NCBI GenBank assembly: GCA_014376785.1
Contig: JACMQW010000038.1
Coordinates: forward strand, 1-36,536
Direction: 5' to 3'
Source: Oligoflexia bacterium
GTDB lineage: Bacteria > Bdellovibrionota > UBA1018
Length of the DNA stretch: 36,536 bases
A program made the translations under genes and the position numbers. Shown here one piece after another: positions 1 to 32,517 of this stretch (within the stretch, counting starts at the first letter, position 1; each line of letters begins with the position of its first letter). The notes under the pieces were generated by a model, which did not search any database, was not told the DNA's origin, and saw only the letters and a list, made by a program, of their open reading frames with translations.

Positions 1-987
1 GGTCGGACACTAAACGGCGTTTGGATTGATTCAAATTTCTATGGTTCTGTTTTTAAGAGTTTATTATTAAATCCTGTAGATCCAGAACTTTTAGTGGTGG
101 CCGGCGTGATCCACTCGAGTGGTGCGGTAGACATTTTACCAGTTAATTATGTTCCGGAGGGAACAGTTTCCGATTCCGCTGCTGAAAATAATTCTAGAAT
201 TGTTCTGAGAAATGAAAACGGACAGGAGATTGGGTCCGCAACCTTCGATACGAACTATTCTACTGAGATCATCCCTTCTCGTGGCGCGTCCGTCACGACC
301 GAAATCTCTCCATTTGTTGTTAAGCTTCCTTATTCAGCCGATGTATCGGTCGTAGAAGTGGAAAGCCAAGGTAAGGTCGTTAAGACAATCCTACCAAATT
401 CGGCGCTTTTACTCGATACCATTAAGGCAATTGCAACGACGTCATATAAAAAATATCCCGAGATTTCTCGAAGGTTATTTCTGGCGTTCGCGGCAGAGAT
501 AGAAAAAATAAATACGAAGTGTATAAACACTACCTATAAGAAAAAGCCAATGCTTCGCGAGGAAGAGCGAATCGAAATGTGTAGAGAATTAAGAGCGACT
601 CTCACTTTAAATTTACGGGATGCGATCGCGAGGGACCTAAATGATTCTTTGAATAAGGCTGATCCGTTAGAATTAACGAAGAATGAAGCTCTCCAGAGGA
701 TAGATTCGGTGCTGCTTCGGTTAATTCCGAATCAGGTCGAGGAGGGTAATCAATCTCAGTATAAGTTACGTATTCTGCCGTATCGATTCGGTCGCAGAGA
801 TGAATCGATTTTAAAGATTCAGTCAGTTACCCAAGGGGTTAATGGAAAAGTTACATACAATAGCTCAGGATACGTGGAGTACATTCCGAATTCAAAACCC
901 GCTTCAGGCGATACGTTCACGGTTACAATTGCTAATAGCTGGGGAGCGAGTGTCCTAAAAACCGTAACTATTTCGCCGAGAAAATAA
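1..987 (+). CDS. 3' part of a large secreted/surface protein with C-terminal Ig/cadherin-like domain (partial)
   Basis: The reading frame is open from the first base of the window to the TAA at 985-987, giving 328 codons. The GTG at 94 is therefore probably internal, and the true start lies upstream of the window. The last ~50 residues (NGKVTYNSSGYVEYIP, then a GDTFTVTIANSWG stretch) have the pattern of tandem-95/cadherin-like bacterial Ig repeats found in large extracellular proteins. The middle contains a Lys/Glu/Arg-rich, probably helical stretch with two Cys. A membrane-protein gene follows after 1 bp, so the two are probably co-transcribed. The sequence is AT-richer than the centre of the window. 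A surface role is inferred only from the Ig-like tail, and the substrate or partner is unknown. Confidence 0.7.
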   Translation, partial: GRTLNGVWIDSNFYGSVFKSLLLNPVDPELLVVAGVIHSSGAVDILPVNYVPEGTVSDSAAENNSRIVLRNENGQEIGSATFDTNYSTEIIPSRGASVTTEISPFVVKLPYSADVSVVEVESQGKVVKTILPNSALLLDTIKAIATTSYKKYPEISRRLFLAFAAEIEKINTKCINTTYKKKPMLREEERIEMCRELRATLTLNLRDAIARDLNDSLNKADPLELTKNEALQRIDSVLLRLIPNQVEEGNQSQYKLRILPYRFGRRDESILKIQSVTQGVNGKVTYNSSGYVEYIPNSKPASGDTFTVTIANSWGASVLKTVTISPRK

Positions 988-988
988 A

Positions 989-1426
989 ATGTACAAAATT
1001 ATCTCAGATAACTTCATGCTTCGGTTTGTAATTTTGCTAGCCGTCATTTCATTTTCAATTTACTGCGTTCCAAATTGGGGGTTGCATGAAAATTTAACTC
1101 CAGATTCGCATTCGCACGTAGGATTGATGAAATCCGACGCAGTAACCAACGCGGTAATGTACAGTTTACCTATTAACTTATTAGGATTTTTCATCCGAAG
1201 GGCTTCGGTCGGCAAATGGTCGATATCGAACTTGAAGCGTGGATTTGCAGTTGAATCCGCATGCACTATTTTCTGTGTCGGCGCAATTCTGGTCTCTACC
1301 AGGAATTTTGGAGGCCCTCGGCTAGTTCTACCTTGGTATCCACTCCAACTTTCGGCGACGGGTATACATGCGGCGTTGGTTCTTTATGTGAATAACCGCC
1401 GTAGTGCTAAATCTTCCGACAGCTAA
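989..1426 (+). CDS. Small integral membrane protein, unknown function
   Basis: This 145-aa protein starts at an ATG 1 bp after the preceding stop codon, so it is probably translated from the same mRNA. It has several hydrophobic stretches: near residues 10-28, near 55-70, around 90-105 and around 120-135. This suggests three or four membrane segments joined by short polar loops. I recognise no family motif. Codon and base usage match the AT-rich upstream gene. It could assist or anchor the large secreted protein encoded just before it, but only adjacency supports that. The gene looks real because of the tight spacing and consistent hydrophobic pattern. Confidence 0.6.
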   Translation: MYKIISDNFMLRFVILLAVISFSIYCVPNWGLHENLTPDSHSHVGLMKSDAVTNAVMYSLPINLLGFFIRRASVGKWSISNLKRGFAVESACTIFCVGAILVSTRNFGGPRLVLPWYPLQLSATGIHAALVLYVNNRRSAKSSDS

Positions 1427-1769
1427 TATTGAATTTCTGATTATTCAAGCTGTTCGTCGTAATTCATCTGTGACAACGTAATCGGCCGTAGCTCTTAGGC
1501 GAAGCTGTCTGTCTTTTAAGTTTTATTTCAACTTCGAAATATCCCGTACCCTCAAAGCAACTCGATTAGCCTTGTAGGGTTCACAAGTCAGTTCAGTCTC
1601 ATGGCAGAAGAGGTTAGCTCACACCCAATAACAATTTCCTGAAATGTGTGTCATCCAGTCGGAAGATCGTGTGCGCTTCAGATCGCGACTAAGAAGTTTC
1701 ATAAATTTTATCTGGTTTTTTTGTTCTCGAAAAAAATTGAAGAAACTTTTGCATCGTCACGAGTGCGGA

Positions 1770-1824
1770 TGCCCTAAACAAAAAACCCGACTCGCAAAAC
1801 TGCGAATCGGGCCGGTTTGGTTGG
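1770..1824. repeat. Direct repeat copy 1: tRNA 3' tip plus terminator (att-like)
   Basis: This copy matches 5614-5670 in the same orientation, apart from two substitutions (1774 and 1812) and a 2-nt difference in an A run. Read on the minus strand it comprises the last seven bases of the tRNA-Gln (CCAACCA) followed by its terminator hairpin, but no tRNA body is present here. This is the layout expected of a distal attachment site, or of the scar of a lost tRNA copy. Confidence 0.75.
1780..1811 (-). terminator. Orphan intrinsic terminator (copy of the tRNA-Gln terminator)
   Basis: On the minus strand there is a 10-bp stem (1802-1811 pairing with 1786-1795, one G-U) with a 6-nt loop, followed by a run of six T. 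It is nearly identical to the terminator after tRNA-Gln at 5624-5657. No gene on the minus strand immediately upstream needs it, except possibly the gene unit ending at 2459. Confidence 0.7.
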
Positions 1825-2458
1825 TTTGATGAGTATCAAATAATTTCGGCCACTTACCGCGCCTTTTGTCCTATTGTAGGACAACTTTTCTTTTTTCCAA
1901 TGCCTATTTTTTTGGATCTCACTAACACCATCGAAATGATGCGAAATACGTTTTAAAATTTTGCGCAGCGGCTCAGCAATACTCGGTAACCCATGCAATG
2001 TTTTCTTGAACTAGGATAGGTCCATAGCCAAATTTGTAGCGCGGAAATTGTTTTGGATGAGCATTCAAACAAAGTTCTTTGTTTCCCCAAATCTTCGAGC
2101 AAGTGGCTTTATCATCTAAAGATGATGACATGTCTTTCAACGAAAGATGGTAAAGGTCTGTCGTCAACCTCTCCGATTTTTTATCTTTGCCGGGCCGAAA
2201 TAGTTGCTAATCTTCCGATCTTTTCTATTAGCCGCTAAGTGAGCAAAACAATCAGGTCCGTCGAGAAAGTAGTTTCAGAACAAGAGCATCAGCAACGCTA
2301 TTAGAACGACAAAGACACATTCTAAATCTCACTGGAGCTCAGATAATTTCAAATTGCGCCAAAGTTGAATTTCCTTAAAATAACTAGGAAACTCGCTTCA
2401 TTAGCGCAGGCTTTGGTCAGATAAGCGGGGAAAGTGGATCTACTTTAGGTCCTTGTAT

Positions 2459-3565
2459 TTACTTTGCTCCATCCAGTCGTTTCCACCATTCGAAGCGGGG
2501 TTGCTTTCCATGGTGCTCTCCTAATTCTTTCGGTTTGCACCCAGACAATTTGGTTGGAACGGACCCGATAAAGCGCTTGCCTGCAGTTGTTTTACCAATG
2601 AGAAAAAGTGACCGATCTAAGTTGCACTGCACGTCGAGGTCGGCGACTAAAAAAGTCAGTAGGAGATTTTTTGGGCGATTATGCCCGGAGTCGACTCGAG
2701 GATGGTGGATGCCTTCGAGAAATTCCTCCCAGACGGATTTTTCATCACCCGCGATATTTTCGAATTTTCCGGAAGTTACAACTTTTGAGGCCACTGGCTT
2801 TGCGTACCCAGGTCCGAACATCGCGTTCGGGATATCAATTTGCGTCGCATCGAATTCGCCAGAACTCAAAATCAGGACGGAAATTCTCCCAGTCGGTTTG
2901 GCTGGATTGATATCTCCGCAACGACCTTCTCCTCCCTCTTCGCGAGCGCGGATCCGTACCGTTGTTAAGTTAGGGTCCGAAGGCCCTGTTACTGATCCAG
3001 TCACTTGTCTCTGAATTTTAGGGAGTTCGAGATTCCAGCCTGGACAATCAGTTTCAGGTTCATCATTAGCGGCAGTACTTGTGGCGTACGGAAACTGTGT
3101 TTCTCCTTCAGCAAAAAATTGGACAAGTCCTGGAGGATGAGGGCTAGTGATTTCGAAACCGCTCACGGATTGTCCAGGCTTCAGGGAGTAGATATGAACT
3201 GGTAGTGAAGTGTCGTTAGTCACCTTATTCGCTTCCCGACTATCAATTCCGAAAGTATTCCAGAGTAGGAATGTAGGAGCCGATCCTAGTTCGACGAAGT
3301 CTGACCTCCAGTTGGCCGCGCTAATTGTGGAAACTGGCTTTTGCCCTAGATAGAGCCCGAAATAATCGATCGATAAAACCGAGTTAGGCCCGTTTTTCAA
3401 CATGTAGCGATACCGATACGTTTGTGATTTCTTATCGAATGTAACGGCTCCGGTTAGCATGGGATCGACTGCACTTTTGGGCGTTGGGCATGAATCCGCA
3501 ACCGCAACTCCGCCAGTTACGATCAAAGTGAAGACAATTGCTGACATTTTCGCTAAATTTCTCAT
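2459..3565 (-). CDS. Secreted protein with calcium-loop-poor 'FDAT…FGP' C-terminal domain, unknown role
   Basis: This 368-aa protein starts at an ATG with an AAGGAACG ribosome-binding site, 8 bp after the stop of the gene at 3574-4971, so the two form a unit. An N-terminal signal peptide (about residues 1-23, ending VAVADS) predicts export. Residues ~225-345 follow a pattern recurrent in bacterial extracellular proteins: a strand such as ISVLILSSGEFDAT, then FGPG, a loop, then a hydrophobic LLLTFLVAD strand and a final Gly/Cys strand. In the usual form the loop is Asp/Gly-rich (a DxNxDGxxDL-like motif). Here it is poor in those residues, so the domain may be degenerate. Four or more Cys suggest disulfides. 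The function is unknown. The neighbouring gene encodes a peptidase-like protein, so action on the envelope or on extracellular targets is possible. Confidence 0.65.
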   Translation of the reverse strand: MRNLAKMSAIVFTLIVTGGVAVADSCPTPKSAVDPMLTGAVTFDKKSQTYRYRYMLKNGPNSVLSIDYFGLYLGQKPVSTISAANWRSDFVELGSAPTFLLWNTFGIDSREANKVTNDTSLPVHIYSLKPGQSVSGFEITSPHPPGLVQFFAEGETQFPYATSTAANDEPETDCPGWNLELPKIQRQVTGSVTGPSDPNLTTVRIRAREEGGEGRCGDINPAKPTGRISVLILSSGEFDATQIDIPNAMFGPGYAKPVASKVVTSGKFENIAGDEKSVWEEFLEGIHHPRVDSGHNRPKNLLLTFLVADLDVQCNLDRSLFLIGKTTAGKRFIGSVPTKLSGCKPKELGEHHGKQPRFEWWKRLDGAK

Positions 3566-3573
3566 ATCGTTCC

Positions 3574-4971
3574 TTAATCCGCTAATTGAACATGCCAGTG
3601 ATTAGTGCCAGGGTTCGCCGGGGATTCCTTGAACACAGTAAATTCAAAGTTGCTTCGGCGCGCCGCAGAGGCAATTGCGTTTTTCTGACCTTGGGATAAT
3701 CCACTCAAACTAATATCCAATGTACGTCCGTTACGATGGCCGCAGTGAGGGGGATTCCAGTCCTTGTGAATATCGTACATTCCGCCCCATTTTAAGCTTG
3801 CTGCTTCGGATCGGATTCTCGGAATTGAAGTCGGAGCTAAGACATAGTTTGGTAAGGCCTCTGAAAAACTCTTAAGTCTGTCTGCCATATTCTTGCTGCC
3901 GTAAAAGCCTTGTGAGTGTGAAGCTTTTGGGTCTGCGCCGTTTATTATAACGTCGATAAACGCACTAGATAGTTCAACCCAATTATTGGAGTCCTGGGCC
4001 TGAACATCGACTGTAAATTTAACTGGATCAAGACGTTCGCCGCTAGGACCGAAACCGTTTACGGTCAAATTTACTTGGTGTGCAACATCTGGCGCTTCGT
4101 ACGTGAATTTACTTTTATCGTTTGGATTTAGCGTGACATCCCCGTTTGGAAGCTTCCCGTGGTCATGGCCGCCGTTGAAATCGCCTTCCGACACATTTAT
4201 TTCGTAACCGCAATCGGTACTGTACTCATTTGTCGAAATTTTCTCACATTTGACTTCAAAATTGCGGTTAGAAGGTCCAGAACCTTTTGCACAATGGGCG
4301 CTCGGATAGTCGTATTGAGACGGAAGAACAGACAGATTCTTGGCACTCGGGACGGCTGTACCATCTGCAAAAACCTCGATAATAAAATGAGGCGATTCTG
4401 GAGTGGGAGAGGGAATCGGAGTCGGAATTGGTGAGGGTTCTGGAACAGGATTGTTGATGTAGACTTCCGAAACGTTGACTGTAGATTCTCCAATCGTCCA
4501 TCGGCATTGCGCAGAAACGAAGTTTTCCACCCCTTGAGCATGAATGATATTGGTACCTGGATAAAGGTGGGTGGTAGTGCCGTATAATGCGCAAAGAACC
4601 GGCGTGCCGGTTAATCCGAGATTTAGATACAAATCATTTGAGTTAGCCGTGAATGTGAAGGAAGAAAAGTAAACTCCCAGATCAGAGATCGGGCCGATCC
4701 AAAAATCTATTCCAGAATTCGAAAAAAGTGGAGGTTGGCTCGTCCTCGTAGTGACATTGAGCTTCACGGAAGTCGTAGTGGGAAGGTTACCAGCATGAAG
4801 CTTTTCCGAATAAACTTTGTATGCAGTGGTTCCCGTTCCAGGCGTGATATTAACGCTGTCAGATATCCAGTCGCCGGGTGGAATCTCGAGCAATGCATAT
4901 GAAGGAGTTGTGTACGCAGCGAAGCAGAAGGAAAGAAAGAAAGTTTTAAGCACGGAACTTTTGATAGTCAT
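3574..4971 (-). CDS. Secreted protein with C-terminal LAS/M15-type zinc peptidase-like domain
   Basis: I start this gene at the ATG at 4971, behind a GGGGA site, which gives 465 aa. The frame is also open from a TTG four codons earlier. Residues 1-27 form a signal peptide. The N-terminal third is Thr/Ser-rich, and a Pro-rich linker (PSPIPTPIPSPTP) lies near residue 190. The C-terminus carries the hallmark zinc ligands of LAS metallopeptidases (M15, VanX/MepA type): HRNGRTLD (His412, Asp419) and NHWH near the C-terminus (His458/His460). Known LAS enzymes cut D-Ala-containing peptides in peptidoglycan, so a cell-wall hydrolase is likely. The central part resembles a beta-rich accessory region. 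It lies first in a two-gene unit inside the tRNA-linked accessory segment. Which ligand acts as general base is not certain. Confidence 0.75.
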   Translation of the reverse strand: MTIKSSVLKTFFLSFCFAAYTTPSYALLEIPPGDWISDSVNITPGTGTTAYKVYSEKLHAGNLPTTTSVKLNVTTRTSQPPLFSNSGIDFWIGPISDLGVYFSSFTFTANSNDLYLNLGLTGTPVLCALYGTTTHLYPGTNIIHAQGVENFVSAQCRWTIGESTVNVSEVYINNPVPEPSPIPTPIPSPTPESPHFIIEVFADGTAVPSAKNLSVLPSQYDYPSAHCAKGSGPSNRNFEVKCEKISTNEYSTDCGYEINVSEGDFNGGHDHGKLPNGDVTLNPNDKSKFTYEAPDVAHQVNLTVNGFGPSGERLDPVKFTVDVQAQDSNNWVELSSAFIDVIINGADPKASHSQGFYGSKNMADRLKSFSEALPNYVLAPTSIPRIRSEAASLKWGGMYDIHKDWNPPHCGHRNGRTLDISLSGLSQGQKNAIASAARRSNFEFTVFKESPANPGTNHWHVQLAD

Positions 4972-5613
4972 TGCATTCCCCAAACGTACTTAATTAATAC
5001 TCCGTTAAGAATAAATTAAAAACCGTGTTTTAATTGACGCATAGGTTTGGTTAATACGCGCTTGCTAGGTATGGGTTTAAACTAGAATCAATTTTTTTTC
5101 GGGAATAGGCACAGGGAGCGGATCGATGAGTTTGAAAGGCTCCAACCGAAGTTTTGATCAACGATCGAAATAAACCCGACCTAATGCGCCGATTGTGCGG
5201 CGACTTGTAAGTTTAGTTCCAAACTTTGTAGGAATGAATTTTTGGTCTTAAGGAAATTTCAAAAAAGTTTCTCAAATTCGAAGGGCTTCAGATGCTTGTG
5301 AAGCTAGCTTCGGCGAATGTGGGTCAAAGTACGATTAGCGGCTACTTTTTCAACGAATAAATTTTTTGAATGTTGCGCGCCTAGAGAAAGTGCGGCCCAG
5401 ATTCTGACAATCGAATCAATCAGCATTCGTGATGATGCTGCTGCTTCTGGTATTCTTTAGTTTAAAAGTTATTTTAGAGAATGAACTCCGCAGAGTTATT
5501 TCGATTATCCATGAAAAATTAATTCGATGTGAAATTCTAGTGCTCCACTTTTCCATCGAAACAAAACCGATCTTCAAACAATGGTTTCTCGCAGCCGCTT
5601 TGAAAAAAACATC
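4972..5613. other. Non-coding stretch upstream of the peptidase gene
   Basis: About 640 AT-rich bases lie between the peptidase start and the tRNA terminator repeat. The promoter of the minus-strand two-gene unit should lie within the first ~100 bases, but no clear -35/-10 pair stands out. The overlapping open frames at 5416-5742 and 5429-5728 read through the terminator hairpin and the tRNA, so I do not count them as genes. Confidence 0.5.
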
Positions 5614-11968: not shown

Positions 11969-13345
11969 ATGGTGAAGCAAAAGTGTCAGCAGATTCTTCT
12001 CTCGCAGAAATGCGTAGTTCTCTTCGCACTGATTTTATTCAGTTCGGTTTCGAATGAAGCGTCCGCTACAGGAATGGTGAAGCTCGAGTCGAATGGATTT
12101 CTACGCCGGTCGGTAGATCGTTCGGACAGTAGCTCGACGCTTTCACTGGGACCTCGGTTAGGGAGTCAGGGCGACTACCTTGAAACAAAACTCGATTTTG
12201 ATGCCATTGTCCAAATCACCGACACTAAAAACTTAAGTGTGGACCGGAGCGCTCTCGCATTCGAGTCCCAAAACGCTTACCTCGCGACTTCGAGGTCCGT
12301 CTTTTCAAAGCACCAGTTCACCTTAGGTCGTAGGATTTACGATTGGGCTAAATTTGATCAAGAATGGCAGTTTGGAGCCATTTCACCGCGCTTTATTTGG
12401 GACCCGACCCGCCCCCAAATCGTGGGTCTGACGGGCGTCTTTCATGCCTACGAGAATGAGCATTGGCGGTGGATGAACTATGCCTCTCCACTTTCCATCC
12501 CCGAGCGCGGATATCCCCTCAGAAACGAAAACGGAAAACTCCTTTCGTCTAATCCCTTCTATAATCCCTACTTTGATTCCGCGGTGATCGCGAAAAAGAA
12601 TATCCCGGTGCAGTACACCGTCGTCATGCCTCCGATCGGCGACTTGATCAAAAAATCCGGCGCAATGACCACAGTCCGTTACTCCACGAGTCCGAGCGGA
12701 CAAGGGTATTGGATCCAAGGAATGTACGGATTTTTGCCCATTCTCCAACCTAACCTCGCCGTAGAACCCACCTATCCACCTCCCTACTCGGCGATTGACG
12801 TTCGGGTGCATCCCGCGATCCAACGCCACCATCTGCTGATGTTAGAAACGGGCGTTCAGGAAAAGCAGTTTTCCCTTTGGGCTTCTGTGACGAAAGAAAA
12901 ACCAACTTCTCGCCCAGTTCCGAGCCTCTGGATTGCGACTCGATCTGAACCCGCCACGGTGCTCTCCGCCGGTGGAGACGTGTCACTGTTCGATGGGTGG
13001 AAATTAAAAGGGTCATATATTTACGTCAGTGAGAAGCGAACGGTAGTTGAGAATGTTAGTTTCACGGTCGATTTACCGGGCCGGTTTCCTTACCATCGCG
13101 CCGCGCGTGGATCGCTCGAGTACCAAGCAAACGAGCGAATGAACTATGCATTCAATCTGATCACCGACATCGAATACAAATCACAACTCATGAGCTTGGA
13201 CGTGACCTACGTCATCGCGACGGATGATCACGCGATTACCTTGAACGTGGGTAGTGATTTCTTCGCTTCAGCCACCGGGAAGGGGTACATCGGACAGTAC
13301 AAAGGGAATGACCGATTCCGCGGAGGCGTTGCCTATGCGTTTTAA
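11969..13345 (+). CDS. Probable outer-membrane beta-barrel protein, unknown family
   Basis: I start at the ATG at 11969; the frame is open from a TTG at 11948, and neither has a good ribosome-binding site. The ~458-aa precursor has a signal peptide (hydrophobic core CVVLFALILFSSVS, cleavage near EASA/TG). The mature part is rich in alternating polar/aromatic strands. It ends GGVAYAF with a C-terminal Phe, the usual barrel-assembly signal. Many Trp/Tyr residues (HWRWMNY, GYWIQGMYGF) would fit an aromatic girdle. I recognise no named family. Its stop codon overlaps the start of the EF-hand lipoprotein gene, so the two are translationally coupled and likely act together at the outer membrane. 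Confidence 0.7.
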   Translation: MVKQKCQQILLSQKCVVLFALILFSSVSNEASATGMVKLESNGFLRRSVDRSDSSSTLSLGPRLGSQGDYLETKLDFDAIVQITDTKNLSVDRSALAFESQNAYLATSRSVFSKHQFTLGRRIYDWAKFDQEWQFGAISPRFIWDPTRPQIVGLTGVFHAYENEHWRWMNYASPLSIPERGYPLRNENGKLLSSNPFYNPYFDSAVIAKKNIPVQYTVVMPPIGDLIKKSGAMTTVRYSTSPSGQGYWIQGMYGFLPILQPNLAVEPTYPPPYSAIDVRVHPAIQRHHLLMLETGVQEKQFSLWASVTKEKPTSRPVPSLWIATRSEPATVLSAGGDVSLFDGWKLKGSYIYVSEKRTVVENVSFTVDLPGRFPYHRAARGSLEYQANERMNYAFNLITDIEYKSQLMSLDVTYVIATDDHAITLNVGSDFFASATGKGYIGQYKGNDRFRGGVAYAF

Positions 13346-15638
13346 AGGGCGCGCTCTGCTTTCTCTCCTCGTTCCGCTCACCGTTGTTTCTTCCTGTGGT
13401 CAGCTTGGTTCTAAAAAAGCAGGTGAAAAGACGATTTTGCCCGGAAAAGACCAAGGTTGCTATGATCAGCTCGGTGACCGCGTGGCTCGCTTTTTCGACG
13501 GATCTATCGAAGCGAAAGAATGGAACGACTCTTTTGATTGTGTCCGCGACCAAGTGGCCTACTTCAAACGTTACGTTCGCGGCTCAACCCCCGAGGGTTA
13601 CAATCAAACCGACATCTCTCTCCTCGTTCGCCAACTTCTGATCACGAATCGACCGGTAACGGATTCGTTCATTGCTTCGATCTTCGACATCAAAGCATCT
13701 GTTTTCGGAGGTCGACCCGAGCTGATCGGAGTCGAGCAAATCGACGAGTTTGTCCGCTTCAGCGAACTACTCCGTCGTGAAACCACCGCTCTTTTGCCGT
13801 TTTTACAAGCACGCAAAAAGAGCCCGAGTAGCGCGAATATGCTTTCACTTGCGGATGGGTTAGACCGTTTCGGTCAGAATCTCAGCCGTTACTTTCTGAC
13901 TTTGCGGGGCTCAACCTCCGTAAATAAGACGTCCTTGCTCCCGTTTGTGCGTGAAATTCTCACGATGCACGGGGGGGATGCTTCGCTCGTCGACCGCTAC
14001 AGTGACGTCATTCGAAATCTGAAAGTGATTATCGCAGGTGGAAGTCCAGATTTCATAGAACCTGCAGCGTGGCCGACCTTAATCGCAGATGCTGCGGCGT
14101 TTGGCGGAGTCCTATTAGCTTATCACGATGAAAACGCAAAATCGTTTGCACAATCTGAAGAACAAGACGACTTCGAGCGACATTTGATTCTAAAGACTCG
14201 ACGACTCGTCGACCGAGTGGTTTCTCGACACGGTGATGGAATTCCACTCGGTCTTTTAGATCCCGTGATTGATACGTTTCCCACCGATTTCCTAACCCCT
14301 GAGAAACGAGCCGCATTAAAGCATGACCTTCGGCCACTGGTATTTCGTGGACTCAAAGGGGGTGTGGTTGAAAAATTAAATTCGGCTGCCGTAGCCACCG
14401 TGGTTGATTTGCTCGACCAAGGATACCGGGCACAAATTCATCTCAAGCGAATTTATCGGAGGTTGCCGAAAAAAGTCGGACCGGTTGAATTCGAAGCGGC
14501 TGCCCGGACGGATATGAGCTCCTTGGCATCGAGTCGTTCGCGATCAGAAGTAAACCGCCTTATTACGATCTCGAAAACTTTCATGGGTCTTTTTCCTGAA
14601 GACAGCGGAGAGATTATTTTTTTGCCGGGCGTTGCTTCCGCTCGCTCTCGGAATCACATGATTCGGATGTCGTGGTATAAAATCCTCGTCGACCACCTTC
14701 TTCCCATCTATGCGACCGGACCATTTGCCCTCGACGGTAAAAGATCTGCCAAAGTGGAAGACCTCACTTCTCTCGTAACGGATTACCTTCAGATCCTCCA
14801 GCAGTGGAAGATGGCTTATCCTATGGTCACGCCTGTGGAAATGGCTGTGAAACGATTCCTTGAAGGAAATATCTTCATGCCGAATTCGAATGGAAACGCC
14901 TATTTCGAAAATGCTGAAACCACTTATTATTTCGCATTTCTTTTTTCGTCATCGGCGTTCTCGCATCGAATCTTTCGCGAGGTCACTACATCTCGAAAAT
15001 TATGGAGCGCGTGCCCAATTACTGGAAAGGATGCCGTCGGCCAAGAGGCTGTCGATGCGTCCTGCTTCCGAAAGATTTATTTTTCGCATCCCGAGATCTT
15101 TTGGCCGAACTTACCGGCACTTCAGCATGATTTTCAGAAAATGACGGAATCCGAAAGGTTGAAGGTAGCTTACTCGATGGAGGCCGCTGGCCGTTTGCGC
15201 GGATATTCTGAAGATCCAATCGGGCCGTACGACACGGACTCCTTTGCCGCGATTACTTATTACGTCGAAGAAATGTTGCAAAGATTCGATTTGAACCACG
15301 ATCAGCTTCTAAACAAGAATGAGATTCTGGATGAAGCTTATCCGGTTCTTAAAATGAAACTCTCGGAACTAGCCGGAACTTCAAATGACCGAATTCTAAA
15401 AGGGATTCTCACTTTCATCATCCAGTACGGCGAAGTGCCTACATCGAATACACAGATTCTGGCGTGGTGTGCCCGAATGCCTTTTATCAATGTCACTGCT
15501 GACCGAGTTGCCGCATACAATGTGGTCGCTTTGCTTTCGGGATCGAGTCCGCCACTTCCGCAGCCAGAAGATGCGTTAGCTCCTCAGCAGGCGTCGCTTT
15601 GGTCGAAGGTTGGTAGGATGATGCGCGCGGCGTTTTGA
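13335..15638 (+). CDS. Large EF-hand lipoprotein, unknown function
   Basis: The chosen ATG (13335) lies 8 bases after GGAGG and overlaps the barrel gene by 11 bp. The frame is open upstream to 13254, but that part is shadow sequence. The 767-aa product starts with a lipoprotein signal ending VVSSC, so it should be lipidated by Lgt/Lsp. The mature protein is mostly helical and soluble. Residues 652-663 form a canonical EF-hand loop (Asp652, Asn654, Asp656, Asn660, Glu663) followed by hydrophobic residues, so calcium binding is likely. I recognise no enzymatic motif. Partnership with the upstream barrel is inferred from coupling. Confidence 0.75.
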   Translation: MRFKGRALLSLLVPLTVVSSCGQLGSKKAGEKTILPGKDQGCYDQLGDRVARFFDGSIEAKEWNDSFDCVRDQVAYFKRYVRGSTPEGYNQTDISLLVRQLLITNRPVTDSFIASIFDIKASVFGGRPELIGVEQIDEFVRFSELLRRETTALLPFLQARKKSPSSANMLSLADGLDRFGQNLSRYFLTLRGSTSVNKTSLLPFVREILTMHGGDASLVDRYSDVIRNLKVIIAGGSPDFIEPAAWPTLIADAAAFGGVLLAYHDENAKSFAQSEEQDDFERHLILKTRRLVDRVVSRHGDGIPLGLLDPVIDTFPTDFLTPEKRAALKHDLRPLVFRGLKGGVVEKLNSAAVATVVDLLDQGYRAQIHLKRIYRRLPKKVGPVEFEAAARTDMSSLASSRSRSEVNRLITISKTFMGLFPEDSGEIIFLPGVASARSRNHMIRMSWYKILVDHLLPIYATGPFALDGKRSAKVEDLTSLVTDYLQILQQWKMAYPMVTPVEMAVKRFLEGNIFMPNSNGNAYFENAETTYYFAFLFSSSAFSHRIFREVTTSRKLWSACPITGKDAVGQEAVDASCFRKIYFSHPEIFWPNLPALQHDFQKMTESERLKVAYSMEAAGRLRGYSEDPIGPYDTDSFAAITYYVEEMLQRFDLNHDQLLNKNEILDEAYPVLKMKLSELAGTSNDRILKGILTFIIQYGEVPTSNTQILAWCARMPFINVTADRVAAYNVVALLSGSSPPLPQPEDALAPQQASLWSKVGRMMRAAF

Positions 15639-26443: not shown

Positions 26444-27682
26444 TTATATTCCTTCCATCAGAGCGATAAAGCGATCGAAAAGGACGCGAGAGTCATGAGG
26501 TCCCGGACAAGATTCTGGGTGGTACTGCACCGAAAACGCGCGCGCTCCGGTGACATCGACACCCGCGACCGTTTGGTCATTCAAATGTCGGTGGGTTACT
26601 GACATCCCAGCCGGAAGCGTTTTTTCCTCCACCGCATAACCGTGATTCTGAGAAGTGATCTCGACTCGGCCACTGGCGATTTCGAGCACGGGCTGGTTAC
26701 CTCCCCGATGGCCGAATTTCATTTTATAAGTTTTTGCGCCTTGAGCGAGGGAGAGAATCTGATGTCCCATACAAACCCCAAACAATGGCACTTTCCCGAC
26801 CATTTCTCGCACGGTCGCTGAGGCATAGGGTGCAGCTGCCGGATCTCCCGGACCATTCGTGAGAAAGACTCCGTCCGGCTTCCGCGCTAAAATTTCTTTC
26901 GCAGAAGTGGTGGCCGGAACGACTTCCAGATCGCATCCGAGGGCATGAAGTGACCTGAGAAGATTCCATTTGGTGCCGAAGTCGAGAACGACGACTTTGT
27001 GGCGCTTTTTAGGTGCGGCGCTTTCCCCATTAAAAGTGGGTACGACCCGTTCCCCGATTTTCGTCGATTTTTGCAGGGACGCTTTCGGGTGGGGCCAGAG
27101 GTAGGTTTCTTTCGTGGTGACTTCGCCGATGAGGTCTCGGCCTTCGAATGCGGGCAGAGCAGCGAGGAGTTCTTTCGCACGATTTCTCTCTGCTGCGGGC
27201 AGCACCACTCCACGGACCACGCCGCTCGAACGCAGATGCCGTGTGAGGGCTCGCGTGTCGATGCCATGCAAACCCGGTATTCCGGCTTCTTTTAAGTACG
27301 CATCCAGTTCTGAGAGGGACCTCCAGCTTGAAGCCGTTTCCGAAATTTCATGAACCACAAAACCCGCGCACCAAGGATGGGCGCTTTCGGGGTCGTCCGT
27401 GTTCACTCCGGTATTTCCGATGTGAGGAACGGTCATGCAGATGATCTGTCCGTAGTAAGAAGGGTCAGTCAGAATTTCTTGGTAACCGGTGAGAGAAGTA
27501 TTGAAAACGACCTCTCCATATCCCCGGTCCCGCGCCAAACCCGTCGTTTTCTGAGCGGCCAAAATCGAATCGCCGGTCACCGCTGCTCCGAAAAGCGTTC
27601 CAGTAAATGCGATGCCATCGGGATGTTCCCGGTCCTCGATGACTAAGACACCGGGGAGATTAGCCTCATGGGATGAATTCAT
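26444..27682 (-). CDS. carA: Carbamoyl-phosphate synthase small (glutaminase) subunit
   Basis: CarA supplies ammonia from glutamine to CarB for carbamoyl phosphate, used in pyrimidine and arginine synthesis. The 412-aa product has the N-terminal domain (GYGEVVFNTSLTGYQEILTDPSY; PHIGNTGVN), then a GATase domain with nucleophile Cys304 in FGVCMGHQ, His388 and Glu390 in VQYHPE, plus ITSQNHGYAV. It is slightly longer than usual (~380) owing to a charged insert near residues 195-228. It starts 2 bp after pyrC. The large subunit carB is not in the window. Confidence 0.95.
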   Translation of the reverse strand: MNSSHEANLPGVLVIEDREHPDGIAFTGTLFGAAVTGDSILAAQKTTGLARDRGYGEVVFNTSLTGYQEILTDPSYYGQIICMTVPHIGNTGVNTDDPESAHPWCAGFVVHEISETASSWRSLSELDAYLKEAGIPGLHGIDTRALTRHLRSSGVVRGVVLPAAERNRAKELLAALPAFEGRDLIGEVTTKETYLWPHPKASLQKSTKIGERVVPTFNGESAAPKKRHKVVVLDFGTKWNLLRSLHALGCDLEVVPATTSAKEILARKPDGVFLTNGPGDPAAAPYASATVREMVGKVPLFGVCMGHQILSLAQGAKTYKMKFGHRGGNQPVLEIASGRVEITSQNHGYAVEEKTLPAGMSVTHRHLNDQTVAGVDVTGARAFSVQYHPESCPGPHDSRVLFDRFIALMEGI

Positions 27683-27684
27683 TT

Positions 27685-29019
27685 CTATTCGACCTCCGAA
27701 AATTTCGCGACACCGTTCACTAGAGTGAGAAGCACTTTACCACGGAGTTTCCCACCAAAAAAAGGCGAGTTCGCGGATTTCGAATGGTTCATCTCAGGAG
27801 TAAAACTCCATTCTCGTTTTGGATCTAAGAGCGTGAGATCCGCCGGAGCACCGATGCGAAGAGTTCCCAAAGCGAGGTTTAAAAGTTTCGCGGGTGCAAC
27901 CGTGAAGGATTCGACCCACCGATCAAGCGACACGATTCCTTTATTTACCAACTCGAACGTCACTGGAACCGCCGTCTGAAGTCCGATGATGCCGTTTGAG
28001 GCTTCAGAAAATTCCACCGCTTTATCGATTAAACTGTGCGGGGCGTGGTCAGTGGCGATCGCATCAATAAGTCCCGTTTTCACACCATCGATCAACGCTT
28101 CGACGTCTTTCTCGGTGCGGAGAGGGGGGGACATTTTATAACTCGTATCGTACGCCCTCATGCATTCTTCCGTGAGAGTGAGGTGGTGAGGACTCGCTTC
28201 GGCAGTGATCGGCAGCCCGTCTTGTTTTGCGCGGCGGATGTGTTCGAGACCAATTGCAGTCGAAATATGCTGGATGTGGACAGGACAGCGGGTGAGTCTC
28301 GTGAGCGCCACTTCGCGAGCGATCATGATTTCTTCGGCGGCAGCTGGAATTCCTCGCAGCCCAAGTTCGTTTGAAAGAGCGCTTTCGTTCATCACGCCTT
28401 TTCCAACCAAGTTTGCGTCTTCCGCATGAGAGATGACCGGAATGCCGAAAGCTTTCGCGTAATCCATCGCTTTTCGCATGAGGTAGGAGTTCATCACGGG
28501 CATGCCGTCGTCGCTAATCGCAACGGCTCCTTCGCGAACCATCCCACCGATTTCGGCGAGTTCTTCGCCTTTGAGACCTTTCGTGACTGCCCCTACGATG
28601 TGAACTTTGCATGCGGCAACCGCTTTTGCTTTTTCACGGATATAGGCCGTGACGTAAGGGGTGTCGTTGACTGGGTTCGTATTCGCCATGCATGCAATCG
28701 AGGAAAACCCCCCGGCGGCTGCAGCTCGAGTTCCGGTTTCGATGGATTCTTTGTATTCGAGTCCAGGCTCACGAAGGTGAACGTGAAGATCGATCAAGCC
28801 GGGCATCGCAATGAAACCTTTTCCCTCGATCACCCACATCCCAGGGAGCTTCGGAATGGCCCCCGGCTTTTCGATCGCACGGATCTTTCCATCATCGACC
28901 CAGAGATCTCCTTCGAAATTTAAGCGATTTGCCGGATCGACGATCCTAGCACCGCGGATCAGGATGCTGCCGGAATTCTCAGAGAGTCCACCTGGAGATT
29001 TGATTTGAGCGTTCTTCAT
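27685..29019 (-). CDS. pyrC: Dihydroorotase (type I)
   Basis: PyrC closes carbamoyl-aspartate to dihydroorotate. I prefer the ATG at 29019 (444 aa, 4 bp after the pyrB stop); ATGs at 29037 and 29058 would overlap pyrB and have no better ribosome-binding site. Metal ligands are visible: HVHLRE (His79, His81), the conserved PGLEYKE, SHAED, the HIQHIS stretch, and ATDHAPHS near residue 320. The leader before residue 17 is a non-conserved extension. Co-transcribed with pyrB and carA. Confidence 0.95.
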   Translation of the reverse strand: MKNAQIKSPGGLSENSGSILIRGARIVDPANRLNFEGDLWVDDGKIRAIEKPGAIPKLPGMWVIEGKGFIAMPGLIDLHVHLREPGLEYKESIETGTRAAAAGGFSSIACMANTNPVNDTPYVTAYIREKAKAVAACKVHIVGAVTKGLKGEELAEIGGMVREGAVAISDDGMPVMNSYLMRKAMDYAKAFGIPVISHAEDANLVGKGVMNESALSNELGLRGIPAAAEEIMIAREVALTRLTRCPVHIQHISTAIGLEHIRRAKQDGLPITAEASPHHLTLTEECMRAYDTSYKMSPPLRTEKDVEALIDGVKTGLIDAIATDHAPHSLIDKAVEFSEASNGIIGLQTAVPVTFELVNKGIVSLDRWVESFTVAPAKLLNLALGTLRIGAPADLTLLDPKREWSFTPEMNHSKSANSPFFGGKLRGKVLLTLVNGVAKFSEVE

Positions 29020-29023
29020 GAGG

Positions 29024-29983
29024 TTATCCGTTTCCATTCGTCGCGAGCCATTTTTCAAGTTTTGGCCGGTCGACGAGCGTAGCTAAAACGGCCATTCGGA
29101 CGAGCACTCCGTTAAAAACTTGGTCGAGAATCACGGAGCGTGGACCGTCTGCGACTTCCGTATCGAGTTCCACACCTCGGTTCACCGGCCCGGGATGAAG
29201 GATGATGCAACCCGGTTTTAGCAAAGCTGCCCTTTCCAGAGAGAGTCCCCAGAAAGCCGAATATTCGGAGAGGGATGGGATCTGCATTCGGTTCTGGCGT
29301 TCGAGTTGGATTCGCAGGCACATCACGACATCCGCATCACCGAGTAATTCCTCTGGTCGATAAGCATAATCGACACCCAGCGTTTCAGGAGAAGGGGGAA
29401 GCAAGGTCGGGGGAGCGCAAACCGCAACCGAGGCCCCCATTTTTCTCAGGAGATGAATATTTGAGCGGGCAACCCGCGAATGAGCAATGTCGCCCATGAT
29501 GACCACGCGTTTTCCGGCGACCGTGCCGAGTTTTTCTTCCATGGTGTAAAGATCGAGCAGACCTTGGGTGGGGTGTTCATGAAATCCGTCTCCCGCATTG
29601 ATAACGGGTACGGAAACATTCTTCGAGAGAAAGTGCGGAGACCCCGCCGAAGAGTGGCGCACCACAATGGCGTGCGGGCCCATCGCTTCGATGTTCTTTG
29701 CGGTATCGATCAACGTCTCGCCCTTCGTAACCGAAGAAGTGGATGCCGCGAAGTTCATCGCGCCTGCTCCGAGCTGTCGAATCGCGACATCAAAGCTCAT
29801 GCGAGTGCGCGTCGAGTTTTCGAAAAAGAGATTCACGATCGTTTTTCCGGTCAGGATGGGAAGTGAAGCCGAACGTCCGGCTTCTTTCTCGCGCTTCAGT
29901 GCCGGTGCCATTTTTTTTGCAGCGTTGAGGAGGAAGCGTATTTCTTCAGGGCTTAAGTCGGCGGCCGCTAATAAGTGCTTCAT
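29024..29983 (-). CDS. pyrB: Aspartate carbamoyltransferase catalytic chain
   Basis: PyrB joins carbamoyl phosphate and aspartate. The 319-aa protein has the carbamoyl-phosphate loop STRTR (57-61) in FFENSTRTRMSF, HPTQGLLDL (137-145), and a C-terminal HPGPVNRGVEL aspartate-site motif. A good AAGGAG site precedes the ATG by 9 bases. There is no pyrI regulatory-chain gene next to it; pyrC follows, as in many bacteria where PyrB and PyrC associate. It lies 15 bp downstream of the lepB homologue. Confidence 0.95.
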   Translation of the reverse strand: MKHLLAAADLSPEEIRFLLNAAKKMAPALKREKEAGRSASLPILTGKTIVNLFFENSTRTRMSFDVAIRQLGAGAMNFAASTSSVTKGETLIDTAKNIEAMGPHAIVVRHSSAGSPHFLSKNVSVPVINAGDGFHEHPTQGLLDLYTMEEKLGTVAGKRVVIMGDIAHSRVARSNIHLLRKMGASVAVCAPPTLLPPSPETLGVDYAYRPEELLGDADVVMCLRIQLERQNRMQIPSLSEYSAFWGLSLERAALLKPGCIILHPGPVNRGVELDTEVADGPRSVILDQVFNGVLVRMAVLATLVDRPKLEKWLATNGNG

Positions 29984-29998
29984 CCGGAATGCTCCTTC

Positions 29999-30691
29999 TT
30001 ACTGGATCTTTTTAAAAATTCGATTGAAACGAATGCGAGAAAACCAGTCTCCCCCGGTATTGGGATTTCCAGGGGATTGGATGGAGAGCCAAACAAATTC
30101 AGCTCGGCCCCGAAGCGATGAGTAGGGAACCAGGCCAGCGGCTCGGAGTCTTCGGCCGTCTGCCGGCATGGATCTTAAATCGCCCGCAACGAAAACCTGA
30201 TTCGCTGGTACCGTGATGGTTTTTTCCGTCGTGAGTATAGGGGGGTCGAAGCAGACGGTGTAAGACGTGTGAGAGGGGAGAGTTTCGGTTGCGCAGAGAT
30301 CGTTCAAATTCCGAATATCGGTTTGTTTCCGGCCATTCAAAATGAGCGCGCCTTTTTCGATCGAGACCGTATCTCCGGGAAGAGCGAGCACGCGCTTGAT
30401 GTAATCGCGTCCGAGTTCTTCTGGGAACTCTAAGACAACCACGTCTCCGTAATTCGGATTTTTCGCTTTTAGACGGCTAGAGTTCCAAGGTAGCCGAAAT
30501 CCATAGGCGAATTTTGAAACAAAGAGAGTGTCGCCCGGTTCGACTGCGGGTTGCATGGCCCGGGAAGGCATTCGGTAGGCCTCGATAAGAAAAAACCGGA
30601 TGAAGAGCGCGACCAGTACCGAGCCGCAAATCGCCAAGCTGTAATCCCGAAAAATTTTCCGGGCTTCCCGTTGAGCTCTTTTCCGTGTCAA
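29999..30691 (-). CDS. lepB: Signal peptidase I homologue lacking the catalytic Ser (probable pseudoenzyme)
   Basis: The 230-aa protein (TTG start at 30691, AAAGGA 10 bases upstream) has one N-terminal membrane segment (residues ~18-36) and the signal peptidase I box layout. Box B reads MPSRAMQPAVEPGD (41-54): the position of the nucleophile in the usual PSxSM motif is Ala45, codon GCC. The general base Lys99 in DYIKRVLALPGD is kept. Box E, usually GDNRDNSxDSR, reads GDLRSMPADGRR (170-181) and is also altered. The gene sits in the canonical lepA-lepB order. I infer loss of peptidase activity; a single sequence error (G for T) could explain Ala45 but not box E. Confidence 0.85.
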   Translation of the reverse strand: MTRKRAQREARKIFRDYSLAICGSVLVALFIRFFLIEAYRMPSRAMQPAVEPGDTLFVSKFAYGFRLPWNSSRLKAKNPNYGDVVVLEFPEELGRDYIKRVLALPGDTVSIEKGALILNGRKQTDIRNLNDLCATETLPSHTSYTVCFDPPILTTEKTITVPANQVFVAGDLRSMPADGRRLRAAGLVPYSSLRGRAEFVWLSIQSPGNPNTGGDWFSRIRFNRIFKKIQ

Positions 30692-30720: not shown

Positions 30721-32517
30721 TTAGTCGACTTTTAAAACCGCGAGGAAAGCTTCCTGCGGAATTTCGACCGATCCAATTTGTTTCATTCGTTTCTTACCCT
30801 CTTTTTGCTTTTCGAGGAGTTTGCGCTTGCGGGAAATATCTCCGCCGTAACATTTCGCGGTCACGTTCTTACGAAGGGCCGAGATGCTTTCGCGTGCAAC
30901 GACCTTTGCACCGATTGCGGCCTGAATCGCGATATCAAACATTTGGCGGTCGATGAGCTCTTTCATTTTCTTAACGAGGTCACGTCCACGGCTCGCCGCT
31001 TTTTCTCGGTGAATGATCAGCGAGAGCGCATCGACATTATCCCCGTTAATCAAGACATCCAGTTTCACCAGATCTGCCGCACGGTATTCGGACAACTCGT
31101 AATCCATCGATGCGTAACCCTTCGTCGCGGATTTGAGTTTGTCGAAGAAATCGAAAACCATTTCATTCAAGGGCAGATCGTAAAGGAGCGTCACGCGATC
31201 TTTCGTGATGTAGTCCATTTTTTGCTGGTGCCCGCGGCGATCGTTCAAAATCTGCATGACCGCGCCTACGTAGTCTGCCGGCATGTGTACGGTGATTTTG
31301 ATAAAGGGTTCTTCGATGAGTTCGATCTTCGTGTGATCTGGGAGCTTCGATGGATTATCTACCATGAGTACTTCGCCGTCGGTCTTCGTGACTTTATAGA
31401 TCACGGATGGCGCGGTGGTGATTAAGTTCAGGTTGTATTCGCGTTCGAGCCGCTCCTGAACCACGTCCATGTGAAGGAGACCGAGAAATCCGCAACGGAA
31501 ACCGAAACCGAGTGCGGTCGAAGTTTCGGGTTCGAAGGTAATCGCGGAATCGTTCAAACGAAGTTTTTCGAGCGATTCTTTCAGATCAATATACTGGTCC
31601 GCATCGATCGGATAGACGCCACAAAACACCATCGGCTTTGCTTCTTTAAATCCACCGAGCGCTTCTTTCGCCGGGTGGTTTGCGTCCATGATCGTGTCGC
31701 CGACTTTCATGTCGCGTACGTCGCGAATTCCGCAAACGATGGCCACTACCTCACCGGAGTTTACTTCGGTGACGTCTTTAAATTTAGGCGTGAAGATACC
31801 GAGCCGTTGGACTTCGAAATTTTTCTTCGCGTGGGCTAAGTAAATTTTCGAACCTTTTTTAATTTTGCCTTCGAATACGCGCGCGAGTGCGATCACGCCT
31901 TGGTACGAATCATACCAACTATCGAAGATCAGTGCGCGGAGAGGTTCGTCGTCCGCATCTTTCGGTGCGGGGAAATATTTGACGACGGCTTCTAAAATGT
32001 CGTCGATTCCAATTCCGGTTTTAGCGGAACAGAGGACAGAGCGCGTGGTATCCACCACCCCGATGACTTCATCGATTTCAGCTTTAGCGCGCTCCACGTC
32101 GGCGGAAGGTAAATCGATTTTATTAATCGCGGGGAAGACTTCGAGGTTGTTCTCGAGAGCCATGAAGACGTTTGCCAGGGTTTGGGCCTCAACGCCTTGG
32201 GAGGCATCGACGACGAGAATGGCGCCTTCGCAGGCGGCGAGGGAGCGAGAGACTTCGTAAGTGAAGTCGACGTGGCCTGGAGTATCGATCAAGTTCAAGA
32301 TGTAGGTCTGACCATCTTTCGCCTTGTAATTCAGGCGAGCGGACTGGGCCTTGATCGTGATGCCCCGTTCTCGCTCGATGTCCATACTGTCAAGCAACTG
32401 GGCTTCCATTTGGCGGGCGGTAACGGTCCCGGTCCGTTCGAGGAGCCGATCGGCTAACGTCGACTTTCCGTGATCGATGTGGGCAATGATACAAAAATTT
32501 CGGATATTTTTAGACAT
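30721..32517 (-). CDS. lepA: Elongation factor 4 (back-translocating GTPase LepA)
   Basis: LepA is a ribosome-associated GTPase that can back-translocate tRNAs under stress. The 598-aa protein has normal length. GTPase motifs are AHIDHGKST (13-21), the switch [17 protein letters not shown] and NKIDLP. The LepA-specific C-terminal domain follows ([21 protein letters not shown]…). It ends 29 bp before the lepB homologue, the order found in E. coli and many bacteria. A small membrane-protein gene lies 30 bp upstream. Confidence 0.97.

What the first reader, a model, noticed from the sequence alone, without database searches (positions are those of the whole stretch)
30541..30600. Signal peptidase I homologue with Ala in place of the catalytic Ser, in the lepA-lepB position
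Box B reads MPSRAMQP, where family enzymes have PSxSMxP; the nucleophile position is a GCC (Ala45) codon. Lys99 is kept, but box E (GDLRSMPADGRR, 170-181) also departs from GDNRDNSxDSR. Two independent departures make simple sequencing error unlikely. The gene still sits in the conserved lepA-lepB order inside a housekeeping operon. A dead signal peptidase with intact fold could be a regulator or chaperone of exported precursors, similar in kind to the inactive SpsA partner of SpsB in S. aureus.
Basis: partly seen in the sequence, partly recalled or inferred. Interest (0 to 1): 0.7.

Follow-up and report, generated by a model that had tools for sequence, protein, structure and literature searches.

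The report
Conserved dead signal peptidase paralogue
The window's signal peptidase-like gene really has lost its catalytic serine, and related bacteria keep the same disabled copy in the same operon beside intact signal peptidases, so it is probably a long-lived non-cutting binding protein rather than a damaged gene or a sequencing error.

Summary
Confirmed. Window 29999-30691 (-) encodes a 230-aa peptidase S26 (type I signal peptidase) protein with PSRAM at box B: Ala45 (GCC, 30557-30559) replaces the nucleophile, Lys99 is kept, and box E is broken. The genome has two intact LepBs in tandem on another contig, so export need not depend on this gene. Ala45 is fixed in the genus (3/3) and commonest in the family (22/30). 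The gene lies in the slot lepA-[S26]-pyrB-pyrC-carA across the class, except in family f5. None of 39 class members has Ser + Lys + intact box E; all 57 canonical proteins in the same tree do. In other Bdellovibrionota the lepA-pyrB interval holds one to three tandem S26 genes, and the pyrB-proximal copy has repeatedly lost Ser, although Bdellovibrio-like genomes keep an intact one. The proteins are under purifying selection (dN/dS 0.13-0.28 where measurable), keep binding-cleft residues, and the family gained a Cys133/Cys147 pair. AlphaFold (pLDDT 93) gives an intact fold. Best reading: a conserved pseudo-signal-peptidase that binds export precursors without cleaving them, like streptococcal SipA but in a Gram-negative phylum and a housekeeping operon. 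The function itself is inferred.

The parts
29999..30691 (-). Pseudo-signal-peptidase gene (230 aa, peptidase S26 / PF10502), TTG start, 29 bp after the lepA stop and 15 bp before the pyrB start
30587..30685 (-). N-terminal helix (residues 3-35) that would be the single membrane anchor
   Evidence: AlphaFold2/DSSP; hydrophobic sequence SLAICGSVLVALFIRFFLI
30548..30571 (-). Box B, MPSRAMQP (residues 41-48); Pro, Met and Pro kept, nucleophile lost
30557..30559 (-). Nucleophile codon GCC = Ala45 (Ser90 in E. coli literature numbering)
30395..30397 (-). Lys99 (general base, Lys145 in E. coli literature numbering), retained here; Arg in 7 of 30 family members
30293..30295 (-). Cys133, conserved in 27 of 30 family P copies, absent from the 19 canonical copies of the class compared; faces Cys147 in a predicted hairpin
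30251..30253 (-). Cys147, partner of Cys133
30149..30184 (-). Degenerate box E, GDLRSMPADGRR (residues 170-181); the family signature is D-x-R-[S/T]
30721..32517 (-). lepA, upstream operon neighbour
29024..29983 (-). pyrB, downstream operon neighbour
27685..29058 (-). pyrC, downstream operon neighbour
26444..27682 (-). carA, downstream operon neighbour

Best explanation
The gene encodes a conserved, membrane-anchored pseudo-signal-peptidase, the pyrB-proximal paralogue of LepB ('P copy'). Shown here: it has the type I signal peptidase fold (predicted) and a preserved substrate-binding strand, but no nucleophile and no intact box E; its family is under purifying selection; it sits in a conserved operon slot; and canonical LepBs are present elsewhere in the genome. 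Inferred: it is anchored by one N-terminal helix with its domain in the periplasm, where Cys133-Cys147 would form a cross-strand disulphide. It probably binds Ala-X-Ala type regions of signal peptides or signal anchors without cutting them, and so acts as a holder, escort or selectivity factor for a subset of exported proteins. I put about 0.93 on 'conserved and catalytically dead as a signal peptidase' and about 0.45 on 'binds export precursors in the old cleft'.
For: Motifs and codon. Two intact LepBs in the same genome. Slot lepA-S26-pyrB-pyrC-carA, or part of it, in almost all family genomes with a readable locus and in other families of the class. None of 39 class P copies has Ser + Lys + box E D[SG]R, against 57 of 57 canonical rows. 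dN/dS 0.17 for a close pair lacking both Ser and Lys (Ala/Arg), 0.23-0.28 for the two parts of another, 0.13-0.16 in the genus with dS near saturation. Residues kept (nearly) throughout both P copies and canonical LepBs: Pro42, Met46, Pro48, Gly53, Asp54, Lys60, Gly82, Arg100, Asp171, Arg173, Trp201; features gained in the family: Cys133/Cys147 in 27/30, Ser/Thr174 in 30/30 where the class's canonical LepBs have Asp. AlphaFold2 pLDDT 93.4, pTM 0.87; strands 133-137 and 143-147 place the two Cys opposite each other. Foldseek: E. coli LepB first, E 1e-12; inactive SipA 4n31 also matched. Where Lys is lost, the neighbouring box E Gly is usually lost too (13 of 16, against 10 of 45 with Lys), as expected when the steric constraint described for Gly272/Lys145 (PMC4049620) is released.
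Against: No direct evidence of binding, partners, expression or phenotype. Five of 30 family members and three others in the class have Ser at the site, so the nucleophile was lost several times or occasionally regained. P copies evolve faster than the main LepB (63% against 83% identity between G000 and G001), although no faster than the second canonical copy (65%). One family of the class (f5) has no S26 gene at lepA, so the gene is not essential to the lineage.
Confidence: 0.6

Rival explanations
1. Decaying duplicate: after tandem duplication the third copy is no longer needed and is drifting towards a pseudogene, held in place by the operon.
For: The active site was lost many times with different residues (Ala, Thr, Val, Phe, Asp, Arg, Asn, Leu). 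Some lineages have short or badly eroded copies (L122, L123, L170, L171, L204) or none at the locus (f5, and G103).
Against: Open frames in nearly all lineages, purifying selection, 27/30 conserved new cysteines, and invariant residues away from the old active site.
Confidence: 0.12
2. Regulatory subunit: the P copy forms a complex with the active LepB pair and changes its activity or substrate choice, as non-catalytic subunits do in the eukaryotic signal peptidase complex.
For: Dead and active S26 proteins coexist in one genome; in other families active and dead copies are adjacent in one tandem array.
Against: In the window's genome the dead and active copies are on different contigs, and no interaction was tested; families lacking a P copy keep canonical LepB.
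Confidence: 0.2
3. Still a protease, using another nucleophile (for example Ser/Thr174 or Ser43) with the retained Lys99.
For: Lys99 is kept in 23 of 30 family members and Ser/Thr174 in 30 of 30.
Against: Lys is Arg in 7 of 30 members that still keep Ser/Thr174; Ser43 is replaced by Asn, Thr, Gly or Val in 10 of 30; box E, which positions Lys, is broken.
Confidence: 0.06

Closest known systems
SipA of Streptococcus pyogenes (signal peptidase-like pilus assembly factor, PDB 4n31)
   Same: Type I signal peptidase fold, single N-terminal anchor, catalytic apparatus lost, cleft kept; no detectable peptidase activity for SipA (PMC4049620). Matched in Foldseek at E 5e-6.
   Different: SipA has Asp/Gly at the dyad and lies in a pilus gene cluster of a Gram-positive; this one keeps Lys, has Ala, lies in lepA-pyrB-pyrC-carA of a Gram-negative phylum, and has a Cys pair. 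By sequence SipA is a weak relative (E 2e-8 to the P profile); LepB is far closer (E 3e-44).
SpsA of Staphylococcus aureus
   Same: Inactive type I signal peptidase homologue alongside an active enzyme, SpsB (PMC12445088).
   Different: Reported as dispensable and lacking two conserved catalytic residues; lineage differs. SpsA sequence was not compared here.
LepB (signal peptidase I), canonical E. coli type
   Same: Fold, Pfam family, box B frame, Lys, D-x-R of box E; best PDB matches.
   Different: Nucleophile Ser and the S278/D280 part of box E absent; forms a separate clade from canonical LepBs.
pyrB-proximal third LepB copy of Bdellovibrio-like genomes (G118 and relatives)
   Same: Same operon slot; grouped with the window's clade in the trees.
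   Different: Keeps PTGSM, Lys and GDNRDASDDSR, so looks active.

Membership tests
Peptidase S26 / type I signal peptidase (as a protein family) | Match to the family profile over the whole domain | tested here: met
   PF10502 119.8 bits against cut-off 22.9; TIGR02227 116.7 against 47
Peptidase S26 / type I signal peptidase (as a protein family) | Signal peptidase fold | tested here: met
   AlphaFold2 pLDDT 93.4; E. coli LepB first in PDB, E 1e-12
Active signal peptidase I | Nucleophile Ser in box B | tested here: not met
   Ala45, GCC codon
Active signal peptidase I | General base Lys in box D | tested here: met
   Lys99
Active signal peptidase I | Box E GDNRDxSxDSR | tested here: not met
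   GDLRSMPADGRR
Active signal peptidase I | Cleavage of pre-proteins | not testable with these tools
   needs an assay
SipA-type inactive signal peptidase | Catalytic dyad lost while cleft residues are kept | tested here: inconclusive
   Ser lost, cleft residues kept; Lys kept in the window copy but lost in 7 of 30 relatives
SipA-type inactive signal peptidase | Encoded in a sortase pilus cluster | tested here: not met
   lepA-pyrB-pyrC-carA operon
SipA-type inactive signal peptidase | Non-catalytic assembly role | not testable with these tools
   needs genetics

The most novel reading that the evidence does not exclude
An ancient signal peptidase paralogue of Bdellovibrionota has been turned, many times independently, into a non-cutting signal-peptide receptor in a fixed operon slot, making it a general export factor in Gram-negative bacteria that has gone unseen because pipelines name it signal peptidase I.
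Probability: 0.3. Interest if true: 0.75.

Novelty: new variant of a known kind. Interest (0 to 1): 0.5.

Why it matters
The inactive type I signal peptidases found in the paper searches are from Gram-positives (SipA, SpsA). This is a conserved lineage in a Gram-negative phylum, with natural series from intact to Ser-less to Ser- and Lys-less copies in one operon slot, which lets one ask what a signal peptidase fold does once cleavage is no longer selected. It also warns that family profiles (TIGR02227, PF10502) pass such proteins as active enzymes.

Tried and rejected
Sequencing error or single-genome mutation: rejected by three genus assemblies and the family survey. The organism's only lepB: rejected, two intact copies. 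Alternative nucleophile: unlikely from conservation. Duplication within the class: the full-tree AU test did not finish; on a reduced 43-row set, grouping the class P copies with the class's canonical LepBs fits worse by 18.7 log units but is not formally rejected (p-AU 0.09), while P copies of the class and of the arrays group together with 97% SH-aLRT. In the full 123-row tree the edge between all P-side proteins and canonical LepBs has only 58/78 support, so a single ancient origin is likely rather than proven. A genome-contig scan with the P profile found only 17 loci, 14 of whose records carry Bdellovibrionota names. Paper searches for Bdellovibrio signal peptidases or other Gram-negative inactive LepBs found nothing relevant.

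Full report
What was checked. The ORF at window 29999-30691 (-) reads as described: MPSRAMQP with Ala45 encoded by GCC at 30557-30559, Lys99 present, box E GDLRSMPADGRR. Pfam and NCBIfam both accept it as a signal peptidase I, well over their cut-offs. The gene starts 29 bp after the lepA stop and ends 15 bp before pyrB, followed by pyrC and carA on the same strand, so it is probably co-transcribed with them (inference).

The organism and its other signal peptidases. Relatives that could be named are Bdellovibrionota. The window's genome (3.22 Mb, 96.6% complete) holds three S26 proteins: this one and a tandem pair on contig 2 with PSGSM, YIKR and GDNRDFSxDSR. So the cell has intact LepB, and the window gene can lose activity without loss of export.

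Survey of the class (58 held genomes). The slot after lepA holds an S26 gene in nearly every family f1 genome with a readable locus, and pyrB-pyrC-carA follow in most. In 30 aligned family members the nucleophile site is Ala 22, Ser 5, Thr 2, Val 1. Family f2 has Phe, f4 and f6 have Val, f3 has Ser with a broken box E, f7 has Ser without the Lys in a 172-aa protein, f8 has Ala without the Lys. Family f5 has no S26 gene at lepA but a second, mostly intact LepB elsewhere. Of the 39 class P copies in the tree none has Ser, Lys and the D[SG]R of box E together; all 57 canonical rows do.

Survey of the phylum. In some other families the lepA-pyrB interval holds one to three tandem S26 genes; in others (f12, f14, f15, f16) none was seen there. 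The first and second copies of arrays are canonical. The pyrB-proximal copy is intact in Bdellovibrio-like genomes (PTGSM, YVKR, GDNRDASDDSR) but has Thr, Ala, Asp, Arg, Asn or Leu at the nucleophile in several lineages, sometimes without Lys. One genome, G118, has 3,782,950 bases, which from memory equals B. bacteriovorus HD100. In trees the class's P copies group with the array P copies (97% SH-aLRT in the 43-row tree; weaker, 58/78, in the 123-row tree that also includes divergent single copies). If losses are irreversible, 18 losses of Ser, 8 of Lys and 11 of box E are needed on that tree; unordered parsimony gives 12, 8 and 8 changes (the two box E tests differ slightly in how they read the motif). 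Some of these depend on poorly supported branches.

Is it selected? dN/dS (Nei-Gojobori) is 0.17 for G028/G032, whose P copies lack both Ser and Lys; 0.23 and 0.28 for the two parts of G011/G029; and 0.13-0.16 within the genus, where dS is close to saturation. Residues shared with canonical LepB around the binding strand and in the fold stay fixed, and the family has gained features that the canonical copies of the class do not have: Cys133 and Cys147 in 27 of 30, Ser/Thr174 in 30 of 30. Loss of Lys goes with loss of the neighbouring box E Gly (13 of 16 against 10 of 45; Fisher p 5e-5, not corrected for relatedness), consistent with the reported clash between Lys145 and any side chain at Gly272 (PMC4049620).

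How it probably works. The fold, the anchor and the P-S-x-x-M-x-P strand that, from knowledge of the E. coli enzyme, lines the substrate pockets are kept while the chemistry is gone. The simplest reading is binding without cleavage, as proposed for SipA (PMC4049620). Which precursors are bound, and whether active LepB is a partner, is unknown.

Novelty. Inactive signal peptidases are known in Gram-positives. A conserved, recurrently inactivated lineage in Bdellovibrionota was not found in the papers searched, which cover only open-licence PubMed Central. I file it as a new variant of a known kind.

Noticed in passing
L204 (G070) 326-772; L171 (G095) 1811-2320; L170 (G083) 1098-1625: Strongly eroded pyrB-proximal S26 copies (149-176 aa open frames) that have lost most motifs, possible late stages of the same process.
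   Followed up: partly
L128-L133, L153-L158 (family f5): Second LepB with PTRSM and GDNRDDTRDSR away from lepA in a family that has no S26 gene at lepA; one member (L133) has Thr at the nucleophile.
   Followed up: partly
L043 (G008) 2670-3674: Another S26 protein with VPESSGMLP at box B (an extra residue puts Gly at the aligned nucleophile position) and an otherwise intact box E.
   Followed up: no
L050 (G016) 867-1520: P copy with a six-residue insertion inside box B (IPSTPSTTPYTMAP).
   Followed up: no
L059 (G025) 823-3073: About 2.2 kb separates lepA from the P copy, and pyrB is not found downstream in the fetched stretch.
   Followed up: no
G007:C109:5637-7393: lepA is split into two frames next to the P copy, and a second lepA match exists on contig C112; frameshift, assembly error or duplication.
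   Followed up: no
window 13254-15638 (+) and 2459-4983 (-): Large ORFs (794, 368 and 469 aa) without any Pfam match at E 0.001.
   Followed up: no
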